Shown here: positions 56,779 to 61,836 of the stretch, one piece after another | Numbering within the stretch: the stretch's first letter is position 1 | Layout: each line of letters opens with the position of its first letter | DNA from: Thermoleophilaceae bacterium | GTDB taxonomy: Bacteria > Actinomycetota > Thermoleophilia > Solirubrobacterales > Thermoleophilaceae | Direction of reading: 5' to 3' | Length of the DNA stretch: 64,000 nucleotides | NCBI GenBank assembly: GCA_036378175.1 | Contig: DASUWY010000023.1 | Location: forward strand, 1 to 64,000 | Position numbers and translations under genes: made by a program | The notes under the pieces: generated by a model | Told to the model about the DNA's origin: nothing | Databases searched by the model: none | The model's input: only the letters and a program-made list of their open reading frames with translations

Positions 56779-57369
56779 CTACACGACGTCCGTAATTGCC
56801 CGCGAGCTGCCGCGCTTGGCCGCCGGCCGGCGACTCTTCAGGGCGCTCTTCACGAGCCGCATCACGAACAGCACCGTGATGGGCGCCGCGCTCGCCAGCA
56901 TGAAGGTGCGGAACCATGCGGTGGATGCGTCGGTGCCCGCGCCGATCGCGTGCACGAGCGACATCACGTACGCCACGGGGGTGAAGCGATGGAGCTTGCG
57001 CCACAGCTTCGCCCCGATCCGCCTGCGGATGTAGAACGAGAGCCCGAGGGCTGCGGCGAGATAGCCGCCGATGATGCCAACCCCCGTGAACGCGCTCCGG
57101 TAGGCCATGTGGAACGGGATCACGATCCCGCTCAGGCCCGGGTTGAGCCACGGGTCGCCGAGCAGCGTGAGCCCGTGGATCGCGATCGCCACGAGCCCCG
57201 CGAGCGAGAGCTGCTCGTGGATGCCCGCCACCTTGGCGCCGCGGACGAGCTTGTTCGCCATCGTCAGGCCGAGGCCCACCGACACCGCGATCAGCCCGAG
57301 CGCCACGATGCCGGACGCCCGGCTCATCAGCCACCAGATGTGCTGTGTGGGATCGACGGCCGGGGTCAT
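56779..57369 (-). CDS. Ferric-reductase-like haem membrane protein
   Basis: 196 residues with about six membrane helices. Two His pairs across adjacent helices, HEQLSLAGLVAIAIHG and HRFTPVAYVMSLVHAIG, could hold two b haems, as in the ferric reductase-like transmembrane domain (FRD, MsrQ/YedZ type). The N-terminus WWLMSRASGIVALGLIA is typical of the actinobacterial branch. No cytoplasmic flavin/NADPH domain is fused, so it needs a partner. The ATG overlaps the ApbE stop (ATGA), tying it to a flavin transferase. Confidence 0.85.
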   Translation of the reverse strand: MTPAVDPTQHIWWLMSRASGIVALGLIAVSVGLGLTMANKLVRGAKVAGIHEQLSLAGLVAIAIHGLTLLGDPWLNPGLSGIVIPFHMAYRSAFTGVGIIGGYLAAALGLSFYIRRRIGAKLWRKLHRFTPVAYVMSLVHAIGAGTDASTAWFRTFMLASAAPITVLFVMRLVKSALKSRRPAAKRGSSRAITDVV

Positions 57370-58361
57370 GCCGCCACCGCCTGCGTCCGCGGAGGCGACA
57401 CGCGCACGTGCAGAAGCGGCGTGCGCTGGAGCGGGCCGATCAGCTCCACGCGGCCGTCGTCGTGGACGATCGCCCCGCCGCGGTCGCGCAATACGCGCCG
57501 GGCGCCGCTTGGACCGAGCAGCAGCGCCGTCTTGGCGAGGGTCTCGGCCTCGAGCGTGGTGTCGGCCAGCGCCGTGGCCGTCACGAGTCCGGTCCAGGCG
57601 GGCCGGCCGGTGGCTGGGTTTAGCAGGTGATGGGCATAGGAGCCGTCCGGCATCCGCCACACCCGCGTGTTGATCCCCGAGGTGGCCACGCCTCCCGAAC
57701 CCACCGGGATGGTGGCCGCGCACTCGCGCGTGAAGGGATGCTCGATCTCAACGTGGTAAGGAACGCGCGCGGCATCCGGGCCTCCGATCCGCATGTCGCC
57801 GCCGCAATCCACCACGAAGCGGGAGTAGCCCGCCAGGGTGTGGGCGATCGCGTCCGCGCAGAGGCCCTTGCCGGCGCCGCCTGTGTCGAAGCGCACGCCT
57901 GCCGGGCGGCGGATCATTCCCGCCGCCGCGTCCACGCGGATCTCGCTCCAGCGGCTGTGCGGATCTGGCTGTGCCGGGGCCCGCACCGGAGCGCAGGGCA
58001 GCGCTTCGCCCAGCGGCGCGGGCGTGGCGTCCTTCCTCGACTCGCGGTAGCCGATCGCCTCGATCGGTCCCACGAGCGTGGGATCCACGAGGCCGCCACT
58101 GCGCTCGGCGGCCCACACGCCGGCGGCCACCGCACTGCACAGCAGTGGCGAGGCGGGCACCGCATCACGTGCGTCCGCATTCAGCGCACACAGCTCGCTA
58201 TCGCCGCGGAAGCGCGACAGCCGTTCGTCGAACGCGTGCACGAAGTCGCACGCCCGGGCGGCTGCCTCGGCAGGGCTCGGAAGGCCCGGCTCGACGGGAT
58301 CCCCGATCAGCAGGCGGATCTCCGAGCCCATCGCCCGGAACGTCAGGTCGTGCTCGCTCAT
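57366..58361 (-). CDS. apbE: FAD:protein FMN transferase (ApbE)
   Basis: Covalently attaches FMN from FAD to Thr of an exported target protein. 331 residues. Conserved regions: FRAMGSEIRLLIG near the start, LSRFRGDSELCALN, FDTGGAGKGLCADAIAHTL (FAD/Mg site, about 158-176), GSGGVATSG and HHLLNPATGRPAW, then DTTLEAETLAKTALLLG. No signal peptide is evident, which suggests cytoplasmic action or a non-canonical export. The usual FMN_bind (NqrC/RnfG-like) substrate protein is not encoded in the window. Confidence 0.92.
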   Translation of the reverse strand: MSEHDLTFRAMGSEIRLLIGDPVEPGLPSPAEAAARACDFVHAFDERLSRFRGDSELCALNADARDAVPASPLLCSAVAAGVWAAERSGGLVDPTLVGPIEAIGYRESRKDATPAPLGEALPCAPVRAPAQPDPHSRWSEIRVDAAAGMIRRPAGVRFDTGGAGKGLCADAIAHTLAGYSRFVVDCGGDMRIGGPDAARVPYHVEIEHPFTRECAATIPVGSGGVATSGINTRVWRMPDGSYAHHLLNPATGRPAWTGLVTATALADTTLEAETLAKTALLLGPSGARRVLRDRGGAIVHDDGRVELIGPLQRTPLLHVRVSPPRTQAVAA

Positions 58362-58768
58362 GAGGTGCGGGTGACCGGTGCGGGCGCGGGAGCCGGCGCC
58401 GGCGCGGGAGCCGGACTGCTCGTCACCACCGGGGCCGACGAGGTGACGGTGCCGCCGCCACCGCCGCCACCCGAGGAACCCGTGGTCAGCGCGGGCTGCG
58501 CCGAGCTCGTGCTCTGCGACGCGGGGATCACCTTCGTGATCACGTAGTCGTCCTCGACCTTGCGCAGGACCACGCGGCGCGGCTGCTGCTGCACCTGGGC
58601 CACCTTCGCGGGCGCGGCGGAAAGCGCCGGGTCGTTCCCGGCGCGCACCTGGAAGGCGAGGAACGCGAGGATCGCCAGGAAAGCCGCCAGCGACCCGAGC
58701 ACCACCGTGGACGCGCTCGGGCGGTTGCGCTTGCGCGGGCGGGGGCTCGGTGTGGCCCGCTCAGTCAT
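58358..58768 (-). CDS. Membrane-anchored protein with Gly/Pro-rich tail, unknown function
   Basis: 136 residues. A basic N-terminus (RPRKRNRPS), one membrane helix (about 22-42), a short conserved-looking segment QQQPRRVVLRKVEDDYVITKVIP, then low complexity (GGGGGGG and SPAPAPAPAPAPAP). The core would lie outside the membrane. 4-base overlap with apbE and 8-base overlap with the upstream gene put it in the same operon. It may present or stabilise the haem/flavin proteins; no motif for FMN attachment (DxxTGAT-like) is seen. Confidence 0.75.
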   Translation of the reverse strand: MTERATPSPRPRKRNRPSASTVVLGSLAAFLAILAFLAFQVRAGNDPALSAAPAKVAQVQQQPRRVVLRKVEDDYVITKVIPASQSTSSAQPALTTGSSGGGGGGGTVTSSAPVVTSSPAPAPAPAPAPAPVTRTS

Positions 58769-59189
58769 CGTGACCCTCGTGCTCATGCTCGCCCTCGCCA
58801 CCGCCGCTGCCACCGCTCGTGCGGGTGCGTAGCGGAGTGTGGGTCTGGGTGCCGCTGCTGCCACTCGACCCGGTGCGGATCGGGGTGCTGGTGGGGGCGG
58901 GGGCCGGCGCAGCCGCGACCGGCGCGGGAGCTGCGGCCGCCACCGGGGCTGGAGCGGGCGCCACCGCGGCCGTCTGAGCCGCGTGCTTCGGATGGTGGGG
59001 CTTCTCGTGGATCGTGCGCCGGTGCACCCGCTTGATGTGCACGGTGCGCACCACGGTGGTCGCCGCGGCGGGGGTCTGGGCAACCGTCTGCTTGGTCTCG
59101 CCGCGCTCCGGTGCCAGCATCACGCCCGCCACGCCACCCACGGCGAAGAGCGAGGCGCCGGCGGCGAGCTTGCTTGCGTTAGAGGTCAT
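58761..59189 (-). CDS. Exported His-rich protein ending in GHDD, unknown function
   Basis: 142 residues. N-terminal signal anchor (about 6-26, LAAGASLFAVGGVAGVMLAP), a His/Arg-rich segment HIKRVHRRTIHEKPHHPKH (about 51-69), a Pro/Ala linker, and a C-terminal acidic/His tail GEGEHEHEGHDD. Both His clusters could bind transition metal. First gene of the minus-strand redox operon, divergent from the two-component system; another anchored protein in the same cluster (61438-61836) ends in the same GHDD. Confidence 0.75.
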   Translation of the reverse strand: MTSNASKLAAGASLFAVGGVAGVMLAPERGETKQTVAQTPAAATTVVRTVHIKRVHRRTIHEKPHHPKHAAQTAAVAPAPAPVAAAAPAPVAAAPAPAPTSTPIRTGSSGSSGTQTHTPLRTRTSGGSGGGEGEHEHEGHDD

Positions 59190-59251
59190 GGAGGTCCTTG
59201 GTTTCGGGGTCCTGCCATATGGTCGGCACGGCCCGCCAAGCCCTCAACAAG

Positions 59252-59266
59252 CTCGCTCAAAGCGAG
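59252..59266. promoter_or_regulatory. Palindrome CTCGCT-CAA-AGCGAG between divergent operons
   Basis: Perfect 6-bp inverted repeat in the 145-base gap between the His-rich operon and the response-regulator gene; a possible binding site for the adjacent regulator. The rest of the gap has no gene. Confidence 0.35.
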
Positions 59267-59322
59267 TGGAAAACCCTTGTCAAGAACAGGTAAAGCCCGG
59301 ATGGCAGAGCACTCCAGCTCTC

Positions 59323-59328
59323 TAAGGT
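59323..59328 (+). promoter_or_regulatory. -10 box TAAGGT; leaderless start of response regulator
   Basis: TAAGGT ends 6 bases before GTG 59335; no ribosome-binding site. Confidence 0.55.
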
Positions 59329-59334
59329 GGCCTT

Positions 59335-60039
59335 GTGGACGCACGCCCGCGCATCCTGTTCGTGGAGGACGAGCGCTCCATCTCGGAGCCCTTCTCGCAC
59401 GCGCTGGAGCGCGAGGGATTCGACCCGGTGGTGGCGCAAACCGCGGCCGAGGCGCTGCAGCTCGCCGAGCGCGTGGACCCGGCGCTGATCCTGCTCGATC
59501 TGATGCTGCCCGACGGCGACGGGCGGGACGTGTGCCGCGAGCTGCGCCGCACCTCTGACCGCCCGATCATCATGCTCACCGCGCGCGGGACGGAGACCGA
59601 CCGCATCGTCGGCCTCGAGCTGGGCGCGGACGACTACGTGGTCAAGCCGTTCAGCGGGCCGGAGGTGATCGCGCGCATCCGCGCGGTCCTGCGGCGCACG
59701 GGGGCCGACGGCAAGCGCGAGCGGCCTCTGCGGGTGGACGGACTTGCGCTCGATCCCGCGTCACGGCGCGTGGTGCTGGACGGCCACCAGCTCGAGCTGA
59801 GTCGCAAGGAGTTCGACCTGCTGCTCGCGCTGATGACCCGCGCCGGGCGCGTGGCGCGCCGCGAGGACCTGATGTCCGAGGTGTGGGACGAGAACTGGTT
59901 CGGCTCCACGCGCACCCTCGACACCCATATCGGCTGGCTGCGCCGGAAGCTCGGCGAGGACCCCGCCGCGCCTCGCTTCATTCACACGGTGCGCGGGGTG
60001 GGCTTCAGGTTTGCCGCGCCGGAGGAGCTGGAGCCGTAA
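59335..60039 (+). CDS. OmpR/PhoB-family response regulator
   Basis: 234 residues. Receiver domain with acidic pocket E11/D12, phospho-acceptor D55 in LLDLMLPDGDG, Thr of MLTARGTE and Lys of VVKPFSG; winged helix with ELSRKEFDLLLALMTRAGRVARREDLM and the recognition helix STRTLDTHIGWLRRKL. GTG start leaderless. Its stop is TAA, which overlaps the position where the sensor-kinase start codon is expected. Divergent from the His-rich/ApbE operon, which it may control. Confidence 0.94.
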   Translation: MDARPRILFVEDERSISEPFSHALEREGFDPVVAQTAAEALQLAERVDPALILLDLMLPDGDGRDVCRELRRTSDRPIIMLTARGTETDRIVGLELGADDYVVKPFSGPEVIARIRAVLRRTGADGKRERPLRVDGLALDPASRRVVLDGHQLELSRKEFDLLLALMTRAGRVARREDLMSEVWDENWFGSTRTLDTHIGWLRRKLGEDPAAPRFIHTVRGVGFRFAAPEELEP

Positions 60040-61457
60040 GCCTGCGCACTCGACTCCTGCTCGCGTTCGCGTACGTGCTCCTGCTCGCCCTGGTGGCGTT
60101 CGGGGTGCCGCTCGCCCTCAGCCTGCGCGACCGCGTGGATGCCGAGGTGCGCTTCCAGGCCTCGAGCCAGGCGGACATCCTGGCCTCCACCGCCTCCGAT
60201 CTGCTTGGGAAGAACAACCGTGGCAACCTGCAGAGAGTGGTGAACGAAGGTGCGGCGTCCGTGCGCGGCCGGGTGATCGTGGTGGACCGCACCGGCAAGG
60301 TGCTGGCGGACAGCGCCGGCGCTGCCACGGTGGGCCAGAGCTACGCGCCCCGCCCGGAGATCGCGGCGGCGCTCGCCGGGCGCAATTACCAGAAGTCTCG
60401 GCACAGCGACACGCTCAAGGCCGACATCCTCGCCACCGCCACGCCGATCCGCCACAACGGTCAGCCGGATGGCGCCGTGCGGGTGACACAGAACGTCGCA
60501 TCGGTGCATCGCGCGGTGAGGAACACGATCGGCGGGCTCGCGCTGATCGGCGCTGTGGTGCTCATCCTGGGCCTCGTGGCCGGCCTCGTGATCTCCGGAC
60601 AGGTGGCGCGGCCCATGCGCCGCCTCAGCATCGCCGTGAGGCGCATCACGCAGGGCGATCTCACGGCGCGCGCACCGGTGGAGGGCAGCTCCGACCAGCG
60701 CTCACTGGCAACTTCTTTCAACGAGATGACCGAGCGGCTCGCCGGCGCGCTCAACGCCCAGCGCCGTTTCGTGGCGGACGCGTCGCATCAGCTGCGAACG
60801 CCACTCACCGGCCTGCGCCTGCGCATCGAGGAGGCTCAGGCGGTGGGGGTGAGCCCCGCCGCGGACCACGAGCTCGACGAGGGGCTGCACGAGGTGGACC
60901 GTCTCTCCGACATGGTCAACGAGCTGCTCCTGCTGAGCCGCGCGAGCGAGCAGCCGGCGGGCGAGCCAGCGCTCGTGCGACTCGCGGGTGCGGCAGACCG
61001 TGCGATGCAGCGCTGGCAGCCGGCCGCGGAGGAGCGCTCCGTGAGCCTGGTCCGCGCGGCGGACACCCAGCCCGGCGCCGTGCTGTGCCAGCCGGCGGAC
61101 GTCGACCGGGCGCTCGATTCGATCGTGGAGAACGCGGTGCAGTACTCCCGCGAGGGCGGCGAGGTGACCGTGGCGGTGAGCGGTGGCGTGATCGAGGTGC
61201 TGGACCGCGGTCCGGGGCTCGAGGCGGGCGAGGAGGAGGCCGTGTTCGAGCGCTTCCACCGCGGCCGTGCTGGACGCTCCGGTCCTCCGGGCACCGGCCT
61301 CGGCCTCCCGATCGCGCGGGAGCTCGCCCGCCGCTGGGGTGGCGACGTGAAGCTTGGCCGCCGCGACGGCGGCGGCGTGAGGGCGACGCTCACGTTTGAG
61401 GTCGCGAGCGAGCAGTCGAAGGACGGAGGTGAGCGCCATGCCGCGCCCGTCTCGTAG
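60036..61457 (+). CDS. Sensor histidine kinase with anomalous start codon
   Basis: About 473 residues if read from 60036. Membrane helices at about 5-27 and 165-190, an extracytoplasmic sensor of about 135 residues, HAMP (GQVARPMRRLSIAVRRITQ), phospho-acceptor His in DASHQLRTPLTG, N box SIVENAVQYSREGGE, G1 DRGPGLEAG, G2 GTGLGLPIARELARRWGG. The N-terminus xSLRTRLLLAFAYVLLL fits the family, but the first codon is GTA (60036-60038), not GTG, because the overlapping stop is TAA. Alternatives are CTG 60042 or GTG 60075, the latter removing half of the first helix. GGAG lies 6-14 bases upstream. Confidence 0.88.
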   Translation, partial: VSLRTRLLLAFAYVLLLALVAFGVPLALSLRDRVDAEVRFQASSQADILASTASDLLGKNNRGNLQRVVNEGAASVRGRVIVVDRTGKVLADSAGAATVGQSYAPRPEIAAALAGRNYQKSRHSDTLKADILATATPIRHNGQPDGAVRVTQNVASVHRAVRNTIGGLALIGAVVLILGLVAGLVISGQVARPMRRLSIAVRRITQGDLTARAPVEGSSDQRSLATSFNEMTERLAGALNAQRRFVADASHQLRTPLTGLRLRIEEAQAVGVSPAADHELDEGLHEVDRLSDMVNELLLLSRASEQPAGEPALVRLAGAADRAMQRWQPAAEERSVSLVRAADTQPGAVLCQPADVDRALDSIVENAVQYSREGGEVTVAVSGGVIEVLDRGPGLEAGEEEAVFERFHRGRAGRSGPPGTGLGLPIARELARRWGGDVKLGRRDGGGVRATLTFEVASEQSKDGGERHAAPVS

Positions 61458-61836
61458 GAACGGCGTCTGGAGCTCAGCGACCTGGATCGCGCTCGCGCTG
61501 ATCGGGCTCGTGCTGGCCGCCGGGGTGTCGATCGCGGCGAGCAAGCTCACGCGCCAGCACATCGGCATCTCCTCGGAGCCGCTTTCCGCTGGGCAGGAGC
61601 TCGCACCGGCCAGCACCACCACGCCGGTCCGCCGCATGCCTGCGCGTCAGCACCGTCACAGGCAGCACAGCGGCACCACCACGCCGGCGCCGATCACCCC
61701 CGCCCCGACGCCCGGCCCGCTGCCGCCGGTGACTCCCGCGCCAGCTCCCACACCGCCCCAGCCTCAGCACCACGACGACTCGAGTGGCAAGGACGACTCG
61801 GGCGGTACCCAGTCAGGTGGCGGGCACGACGACTAG
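61438..61836 (+). CDS. Membrane-anchored His/Asp-rich protein ending in GHDD, unknown function
   Basis: 132 residues. Basic N-terminus (PRPSRRN), a membrane helix (about 13-35, WIALALIGLVLAAGVSIAAS), a short stretch GISSEPLSAGQELAP, then RMPARQHRHRQHSGTTTP, a Pro/Thr linker and a tail QPQHHDDSSGKDDSGG...GGGHDD. His and Asp clusters could bind metal. GGAGGT 9 bases upstream and a 20-base overlap with the kinase gene support the ATG. Architecture and the GHDD end match the protein at 58761-59189. The TAG stop shares CTAG with the convergent CBS gene. Confidence 0.75.
   Translation: MPRPSRRNGVWSSATWIALALIGLVLAAGVSIAASKLTRQHIGISSEPLSAGQELAPASTTTPVRRMPARQHRHRQHSGTTTPAPITPAPTPGPLPPVTPAPAPTPPQPQHHDDSSGKDDSGGTQSGGGHDD

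What the first reader, a model, noticed from the sequence alone, without database searches (positions are those of the whole stretch)
56779..61836. Candidate extracytoplasmic redox/metal system: haem membrane protein, ApbE, GHDD-tailed proteins and a dedicated two-component system
A minus-strand operon (His-rich GHDD protein, anchored Gly/Pro protein, ApbE, ferric-reductase-like protein) faces a plus-strand operon (regulator, kinase, second GHDD protein). The two GHDD proteins share a layout: signal anchor, His-rich stretch, Pro linker, His/Asp tail ending in GHDD. ApbE implies a flavinylated external protein, and the haem protein could pass electrons across the membrane. The usual FMN_bind target is missing, so either it lies elsewhere or an unusual protein is modified. 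Iron or copper reduction and acquisition, or external electron transfer, are plausible roles. The dehydrogenase and FAD oxidoreductase downstream could supply electrons.
Basis: inference. Interest (0 to 1): 0.68.

Follow-up and report, generated by a model that had tools for sequence, protein, structure and literature searches.

The report
Tail-tip flavin carriers beside ApbE
The operon probably hangs a redox-active vitamin B2 derivative on the very last amino acid of tiny, floppy membrane-anchored proteins that then carry electrons outside the cell; the same gene layout, overlooked or annotated as hypothetical protein, turns up in several bacterial phyla, but no bench test of it exists yet.

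Summary
The genes exist as described. The locus is an ApbE + ferric-reductase-like (MsrQ-like) electron-transfer cluster with its own two-component system, conserved across relatives in Solirubrobacterales. The small anchored protein translated just before ApbE ends in ...PVTRTS-stop. In 133 ApbE loci with an upstream membrane-anchored ORF, chosen without any motif, the last residue is Ser in 113 and never Thr (20 expected from composition); 111 end [ST]xxS (6 expected). The tail P-V-x-[ST]-[G..]-[GAQ..]-S-COOH lines up in register with the ApbE acceptor motif D-x-x-[ST]-G-A-[ST]. It occurs upstream of 115/151 ApbE genes versus 11/835 other genes, and also in Deinococcus, Psychrobacter, Arthrobacter, Mycolicibacterium and Alicyclobacillus. 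The first GHDD protein carries the same motif internally (20 matches in its family, 1.6 by shuffling); the second does not. Best reading: the anchored proteins are minimal ApbE substrates with FMN on a tail-tip serine, taking electrons from the two-haem membrane protein. Flavinylation and the final acceptor are inferred. The GHDD tail is conserved only as terminal DD. The papers I could search do not describe this substrate class.

The parts
58358..58768 (-). Anchored small protein (136 aa), candidate ApbE substrate: basic N-terminus, one TM helix, GNDPAL motif, basic VVLRKV segment, Ser/Gly/Ala-Pro linker, C-terminus PVTRTS-stop
58361..58378 (-). C-terminal acceptor-like motif P-V-T-R-T-S; Ser136 (codon 58361-58363) is the predicted FMN-Ser
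   Evidence: sequence; motif statistics; coordinates derived from the protein printed
58469..58489 (-). Second, internal motif-like stretch LTTGSSG in the anchored protein (weaker candidate)
58761..59189 (-). First GHDD protein (142 aa): N-terminal anchor, His/basic stretch, Pro linker, two internal acceptor-like motifs, acidic tail ending GHDD
58860..58880 (-). Internal acceptor-like motif IRTGSSG
58812..58832 (-). Internal acceptor-like motif LRTRTSG
57366..58361 (-). ApbE, FAD:protein FMN transferase (331 aa, no signal peptide); start codon overlaps the stop of the anchored protein (ATGA)
56779..57369 (-). MsrQ/ferric-reductase-like membrane protein (196 aa), four invariant His (H51, H65, H127, H140), predicted two-haem electron conduit
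59335..60039 (+). OmpR/PhoB-type response regulator
60036..61457 (+). Sensor histidine kinase (HAMP, HisKA, HATPase; weak Cache-like sensor match)
61438..61836 (+). Second GHDD protein (132 aa): anchor, conserved IGxxSEPxSAGxxLAP-type juxtamembrane stretch, acidic tail; no acceptor-like motif
59268..59295 (+). Candidate regulator-binding repeats GGAAAAC / TGTCAAG / GGTAAAG spaced 10-11 bp in the divergent promoter region (lead only)

Best explanation
This is an extracytoplasmic electron-transfer cluster of the MsrQ-like/ApbE type in which the usual FMN_bind protein is replaced by minimal substrates. ApbE attaches FMN to the final serine of a small membrane-anchored, otherwise disordered protein (58358-58768), and probably also to serines of the internal motifs of the first GHDD protein (58761-59189). 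The two-haem membrane protein (56779-57369) moves electrons from a cytoplasmic donor (in relatives a ferredoxin reductase plus ferredoxin) to these tethered flavins, which pass them to an outside acceptor, possibly a metal. The divergent regulator and kinase control expression. Shown by computation: gene order, conservation of the tail motif and its link to ApbE, invariant His, N-in/C-out charge pattern. Inferred: covalent flavinylation, direction of electron flow, acceptor, signal.
For: Tail motif next to ApbE in 115/151 loci versus 11/835 control genes (odds ratio 239); at least 13 of the 30 loci that miss the rule have the motif followed by 1-5 residues, or missed only the membrane cut-off. 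Motif-free selection: last residue Ser in 113/133, -4 Ser/Thr in 115/133; 20 and, for [ST]xxS, 6 expected from composition against 113 and 111 seen. Not an overlap artefact: 56/115 stops do not overlap the ApbE start. Register matches D-x-x-[ST]-G-A-[ST] (PMC12052999), with [ST]G[AGQ]S in 52/115 and exact SGAS in four. Loci with a clear FMN_bind protein have that in the same place instead, with longer (403-426 aa) reductases. All 46 reductase-positive relatives have ApbE, versus 5 of 55 without. In the same genome another reductase has a mini-protein ending TTSQS and no ApbE beside it. ApbE active-site residues are conserved. Seven-residue tags at a terminus suffice for ApbE, and Asp is nearly dispensable. 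Named examples in four phyla; the Alicyclobacillus one has a peptidoglycan-binding domain.
Against: No biochemical evidence. The conserved Asp of the canonical motif is replaced by Pro or others, and the -2/-3 positions are loose. The acceptor is always Ser, although known ApbEs prefer Thr. These ApbEs have no signal peptide (114/115), so how a cytoplasmic enzyme modifies a tail that ends up outside is unexplained (modification before export would be needed). The genomes are related, so counts are not independent events. The reductase model is of low confidence (pLDDT 60).
Confidence: 0.78

Rival explanations
1. The conserved C-terminal serine motif is a recognition tail for something other than ApbE (docking to the reductase, export or proteolysis), and ApbE modifies another protein.
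For: Canonical Asp is absent and the acceptor is always Ser; ApbE lacks a signal peptide; in one case the mini-protein sits with the reductase and no ApbE.
Against: The motif is in register with the ApbE acceptor, some cases are exactly SGAS or TGAS, and FMN_bind proteins take the same place when the motif is absent.
Confidence: 0.13
2. ApbE of this locus acts in trans on a canonical FMN_bind protein elsewhere; the small proteins are only structural or scaffold parts.
For: The genome holds one divergent FMN_bind protein with SGAT on contig C33.
Against: That FMN_bind gene has its own adjacent ApbE; in an order sample 131 of 201 genomes have ApbE and only 22 a recognised FMN_bind (the FMN_bind count is a lower bound).
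Confidence: 0.05
3. Metal system: the His/Asp tails of the two GHDD proteins bind iron or copper, and the cluster serves metal reduction and uptake. This can be true together with the main explanation.
For: Acidic DD tails recur in these clusters; VIT-family transporters lie in the Deinococcus and Psychrobacter clusters; VIT1 association of MsrQ-like clusters is published (PMC8238504).
Against: His is not conserved in the tails; no transporter or metal regulator in the window cluster; the regulator matches several families, all below their cut-offs.
Confidence: 0.3
4. ApbE here is a FAD pyrophosphatase (Ftp type) rather than a transferase, and no protein is flavinylated.
For: Such ApbE relatives exist (PMC4767422, abstract listed).
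Against: Would not explain the tail motif tied to ApbE across phyla.
Confidence: 0.03

Closest known systems
MsrQ-like flavinylation systems of Actinobacteria (Meheust et al. 2021, PMC8238504)
   Same: ApbE with a PF01794 haem membrane protein; a variant with a NuoF-like protein also appears among the relatives here; cytoplasmic electron donor, extracytoplasmic flavin.
   Different: [quoted passage not shown] here both are missing and small C-terminal-motif proteins take the substrate's place.
Other non-FMN_bind ApbE substrates: DUF2271, DUF3570 (PMC8238504), Flavodoxin_4 and FMN_red (PMC11334425)
   Same: ApbE-adjacent proteins recognised by an [ST]GA[ST]-like motif; Ser acceptors are documented for DUF3570; an L. 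lactis FMN_red has sites on an unstructured C-terminal extension.
   Different: Those are folded domains; here the substrate has no recognised folded domain and the acceptor is the last residue.
Flavin-tag (Tong et al. 2021, described in PMC12052999)
   Same: A seven-residue motif at a terminus is enough for ApbE.
   Different: An engineered tool with the canonical Asp-containing motif; here a natural C-terminal tag with a relaxed motif.
STEAP / bacterial NADPH oxidase SpNOX fold
   Same: Best fold matches of the reductase model; two invariant His pairs 13-14 residues apart.
   Different: Much shorter, no flavin/NAD(P)H domain; fold match weak (E 0.02) on a low-confidence model.

Membership tests
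ApbE (FAD:protein FMN transferase) | PF02424 profile above cut-off | tested here: met
   E 2.2e-41, 142.6 bits against cut-off 25.6
ApbE (FAD:protein FMN transferase) | Conserved catalytic Ser and His, FAD/Mg motifs | tested here: met
   S228, H244, D159, K165, G188-D189, T227 at least 97% conserved in 115 mini-protein-linked ApbEs; aligned with solved ApbE
ApbE (FAD:protein FMN transferase) | FMN transfer to a protein | not testable with these tools
   needs biochemistry
ApbE substrate with canonical motif D-x-x-[ST]-G-A-[ST] | Ser/Thr acceptor with Ser/Thr three residues before it | tested here: met
   111/133 motif-free selected tails end [ST]xxS, 6 expected; window tail T-R-T-S
ApbE substrate with canonical motif D-x-x-[ST]-G-A-[ST] | Asp six residues before the acceptor and Gly-Ala just before it | tested here: not met
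   Pro is commonest in place of Asp; Gly 46%, Ala 17%; window has A/P and R-T
FMN_bind (PF04205) | Folded FMN-binding domain | tested here: not met
   no Pfam match for the small proteins
MsrQ-like flavinylation system | PF01794 membrane protein with two haem sites beside ApbE | tested here: met
   Pfam E 3.5e-5 for the window protein, slightly under the curated cut-off; four invariant His in 108 homologues; haem itself not tested
MsrQ-like flavinylation system | FMN-binding-domain gene in the cluster (typical feature) | tested here: not met
   absent from the window cluster
MsrPQ methionine sulfoxide reductase | MsrP molybdopterin subunit in the cluster | tested here: not met
   no such domain among the ten window proteins scanned

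The most novel reading that the evidence does not exclude
A widespread natural 'flavin tag': tiny, domain-free anchored proteins carry FMN on their last residue on a flexible leash and serve as swinging electron carriers between a haem membrane protein and the outside, in at least four phyla, accounting for many ApbE genes whose substrate is unknown.
Probability: 0.6. Interest if true: 0.82.

Novelty: new variant of a known kind. Interest (0 to 1): 0.72.

Why it matters
About 4% of ApbE-bearing genomes in the 2021 survey still had no known substrate, and its authors expected further substrate types (PMC8238504). A domain-free substrate whose acceptor is the C-terminal serine would fill part of that gap, show how little protein a flavin electron carrier needs, and raise two testable questions: how these signal-less ApbEs reach or pre-modify exported tails, and whether a flavin on a loose leash can pass electrons. 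It also offers a relaxed, Asp-free motif for flavin labelling. The genes are small, low in complexity and sometimes not annotated at all.

Tried and rejected
Own-genome FMN_bind search gave none, but inspection of the C33 ApbE neighbourhood found a divergent one, so 'no FMN_bind in the genome' was dropped. GHDD as a conserved signature was dropped: only DD is kept. Translation-overlap artefact as the cause of the terminal Ser (ATGA) was rejected: 56 of 115 stops do not overlap. A C-in topology, in which the tail flavin would donate electrons inside, was considered; the charge rule favours C-out in 102/115 and one homologue has a peptidoglycan-binding domain. A PDB sequence search with the reductase gave nothing useful; its AlphaFold model is poor and only weakly matches STEAP and SpNOX. 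A loose regex for FMN_bind also hit mini-protein clusters by low complexity; only L081-L084 were taken as real. My first gene calling missed many mini-proteins because of their low complexity; a direct ORF scan recovered them. NCBIfam gave no family for the small proteins. Papers: no description of this substrate type found, but the library lacks most subscription journals and bioRxiv.
Full report
WHAT IS THERE. The window lies in a genome of the order Solirubrobacterales (inferred: the three named relatives fetched by the reductase are Solirubrobacterales MAGs). The finding's genes are all present. Minus strand: first GHDD protein 58761-59189, anchored protein 58358-58768, ApbE 57366-58361, ferric-reductase-like protein (FRD) 56779-57369, each overlapping the next by a few bases. 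Plus strand: regulator 59335-60039, kinase 60036-61457, second GHDD protein 61438-61836. The anchored protein and ApbE share an ATGA stop/start.

CONSERVATION. FRD homologues occur in 46 of 101 relatives. Gene calling on fetched neighbourhoods shows the same arrangement repeatedly: small protein(s)-ApbE-FRD diverging from regulator-kinase-small acidic protein. All 46 FRD-positive genomes have ApbE, against 5 of the 55 without FRD. In many relatives the FRD is followed by a ferredoxin reductase (Pyr_redox_2 plus Reductase_C) and a Fer4_13 ferredoxin. The window has a zinc dehydrogenase and a different FAD oxidoreductase there; the genome's own reductase/ferredoxin pair is on contig C67.

THE SUBSTRATE. 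No FMN_bind protein is in the cluster. Reading the small proteins side by side shows that those directly upstream of ApbE share little in their linkers but end alike: TRTS, TSAS, TATS, TSQS, SGGS, SGQS, SGAS, with Ser as the last letter. I tested this three ways. First, a fixed rule (TM segment, stop within -150 to +45 bases of the start, ending [ST]xxS) holds for 115 of 151 ApbE genes and 11 of 835 other genes. Second, choosing the best TM ORF upstream of ApbE without any motif rule gives Ser last in 113 of 133 and Ser/Thr at -4 in 115 of 133; Ser is last in 16% of all other genes. Third, drawing tail ends at random from each tail's own composition gives 20 and 6 where 113 and 111 are seen, and Thr is never last although it makes up 9% of the tails. 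Information per column peaks at the last (3.3 bits) and fourth-last (2.4 bits) residues. At least 13 of the 30 loci that miss the rule have the motif followed by 1-5 residues, or failed only the TM cut-off. In 56 of 115 cases the stop does not overlap the ApbE start, so the Ser is not forced by coupling. Because genomes in a clade are related, these counts overstate independence, but strict cases come from the window's order, four more families of its class and several families of other classes of the phylum.

WHY FLAVINYLATION. ApbE is known to modify the last Ser/Thr of D-x-x-[ST]-G-A-[ST]; seven residues at a protein end suffice, and Asp to Ala has a minor effect (PMC12052999). Aligned on the acceptor, the tails read P-V-x-[ST]-[G46%]-[G/A/Q]-S: the two hydroxyl positions coincide. 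52 of 115 are [ST]G[AGQ]S and four are exactly SGAS. Where a clear FMN_bind protein is present (L081-L084) it occupies the same place and the FRD is 403-426 aa instead of mostly 180-245 or 350-380. In the same genome another FRD (contig C51) is paired with a mini-protein ending TTSQS without ApbE beside it. The ApbEs keep their active-site residues. The charge distribution predicts N-in/C-out in 102 of 115, with a tail of about 90 residues.

THE GHDD PROTEINS. The first family has a similar anchor and basic stretch and carries the motif internally, mostly followed by Gly: 20 matches against 1.6 expected by shuffling (maximum 6 in 500), four in L043; the window copy has two. The second family has none above chance (1 versus 0.4). 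Both end in DD; GH is not conserved. So they are two different proteins with acidic tails. Metal binding by the tails remains untested.

THE HAEM PROTEIN. Across 108 short FRD homologues H51, H65, H127 and H140 are invariant, as expected for two bis-His haems. A shallow AlphaFold model is poor (pLDDT 60); its best PDB matches are nevertheless STEAP1 and SpNOX.

BEYOND THE ORDER. Annotated plasmids give named cases: Deinococcus sp. AB2017081 (69-aa protein ending ARTRGS, ApbE, FRD, VIT1/CCC1 transporter), Psychrobacter sp. G (104-aa protein ending RTRSSQ, PepSY protein with a DD tail, FRD-like protein, VIT protein), Arthrobacter sp. D5-1 pAD51 (ORF ending TTTRAS, not in the record's gene table, with FRD, NuoF-like protein and ferredoxin), Mycolicibacterium aubagnense (one protein ending SKASGG and one with an acidic DD tail, ApbE, FRD, divergent regulator and kinase) and Alicyclobacillus fastidiosus (peptidoglycan-binding protein with a tail ending TSSSASSP, FRD, FAD oxidoreductase, ferredoxin, divergent regulator and kinase). 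The VIT neighbours fit the published link of MsrQ-like clusters to iron (PMC8238504) and make iron reduction a fair guess for those; the window cluster has no such gene.

KNOWN OR NEW. MsrQ-like/ApbE clusters are known; their substrate is described as an FMN-binding-domain protein, and other ApbE substrates reported are folded domains (PMC8238504, PMC11334425). I found no description of domain-free proteins with a C-terminal acceptor, with the limits of the library. I therefore call it a new variant of a known kind.

OPEN POINTS. 114 of 115 linked ApbEs have no N-terminal hydrophobic segment, so where the modification happens is unclear. The acceptor outside the cell and the kinase's signal are unknown. 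A repeat of GGTAAAG-type heptamers 11 bp apart upstream of the regulator (the heptamer in 19 of 91 loci against 0.5 expected; window 59268-59295) is a lead for the regulator's binding site.

Noticed in passing
L062:7503-8563 (contig C51 of the same genome): A mini-protein ending TTSQS directly upstream of a reductase paralogue with no ApbE nearby; an S53-type protease-like gene (529 aa, reading from sequence only) follows.
   Followed up: partly
L059:10021-12459 (contig C34 of the same genome): A second ApbE cluster with a mini-protein ending SGGS, a 356-aa reductase with an unassigned C-terminal region, and a cytochrome P450 22 bases downstream.
   Followed up: partly
L122, L138, L213: Clusters of the SGGS/TRAS type carry a NuoF-like protein and a small ferredoxin after the reductase (read from sequence in L122 and L138, annotated in L213).
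   Followed up: no
L088, L090, L091: About 185-aa secreted-type proteins upstream of ApbE with a conserved DAHTGSGGSGY end region finishing in RWS or DWS; possibly yet another ApbE substrate type.
   Followed up: no
L187, L188, L189: ApbE about 42% identical to the window's next to a Ppx/GppA-like gene (reading from sequence only), with neither reductase nor mini-protein: an ApbE with no visible substrate.
   Followed up: no
L047:5417-6931, and similar proteins in L050 and L141: DUF5666 protein (Pfam run for L047 only) with a long Asp/Ser repeat tail in the same operon as the flavin cluster.
   Followed up: no
window 59268-59295: Tandem heptamers 10-11 bp apart in the divergent promoter, similar to repeats upstream of related regulators.
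   Followed up: partly
L213, stop at 2438 (Arthrobacter plasmid pAD51): Mini-protein ORF ending TTTRAS just before ApbE is not in the public record's gene table as distributed by PLSDB.
   Followed up: yes
L061:4789-5199 (contig C33): Divergent FMN_bind protein with SGAT beside ApbE, missed by the genome-wide FMN_bind search; such misses make the order-wide FMN_bind count a lower bound.
   Followed up: yes
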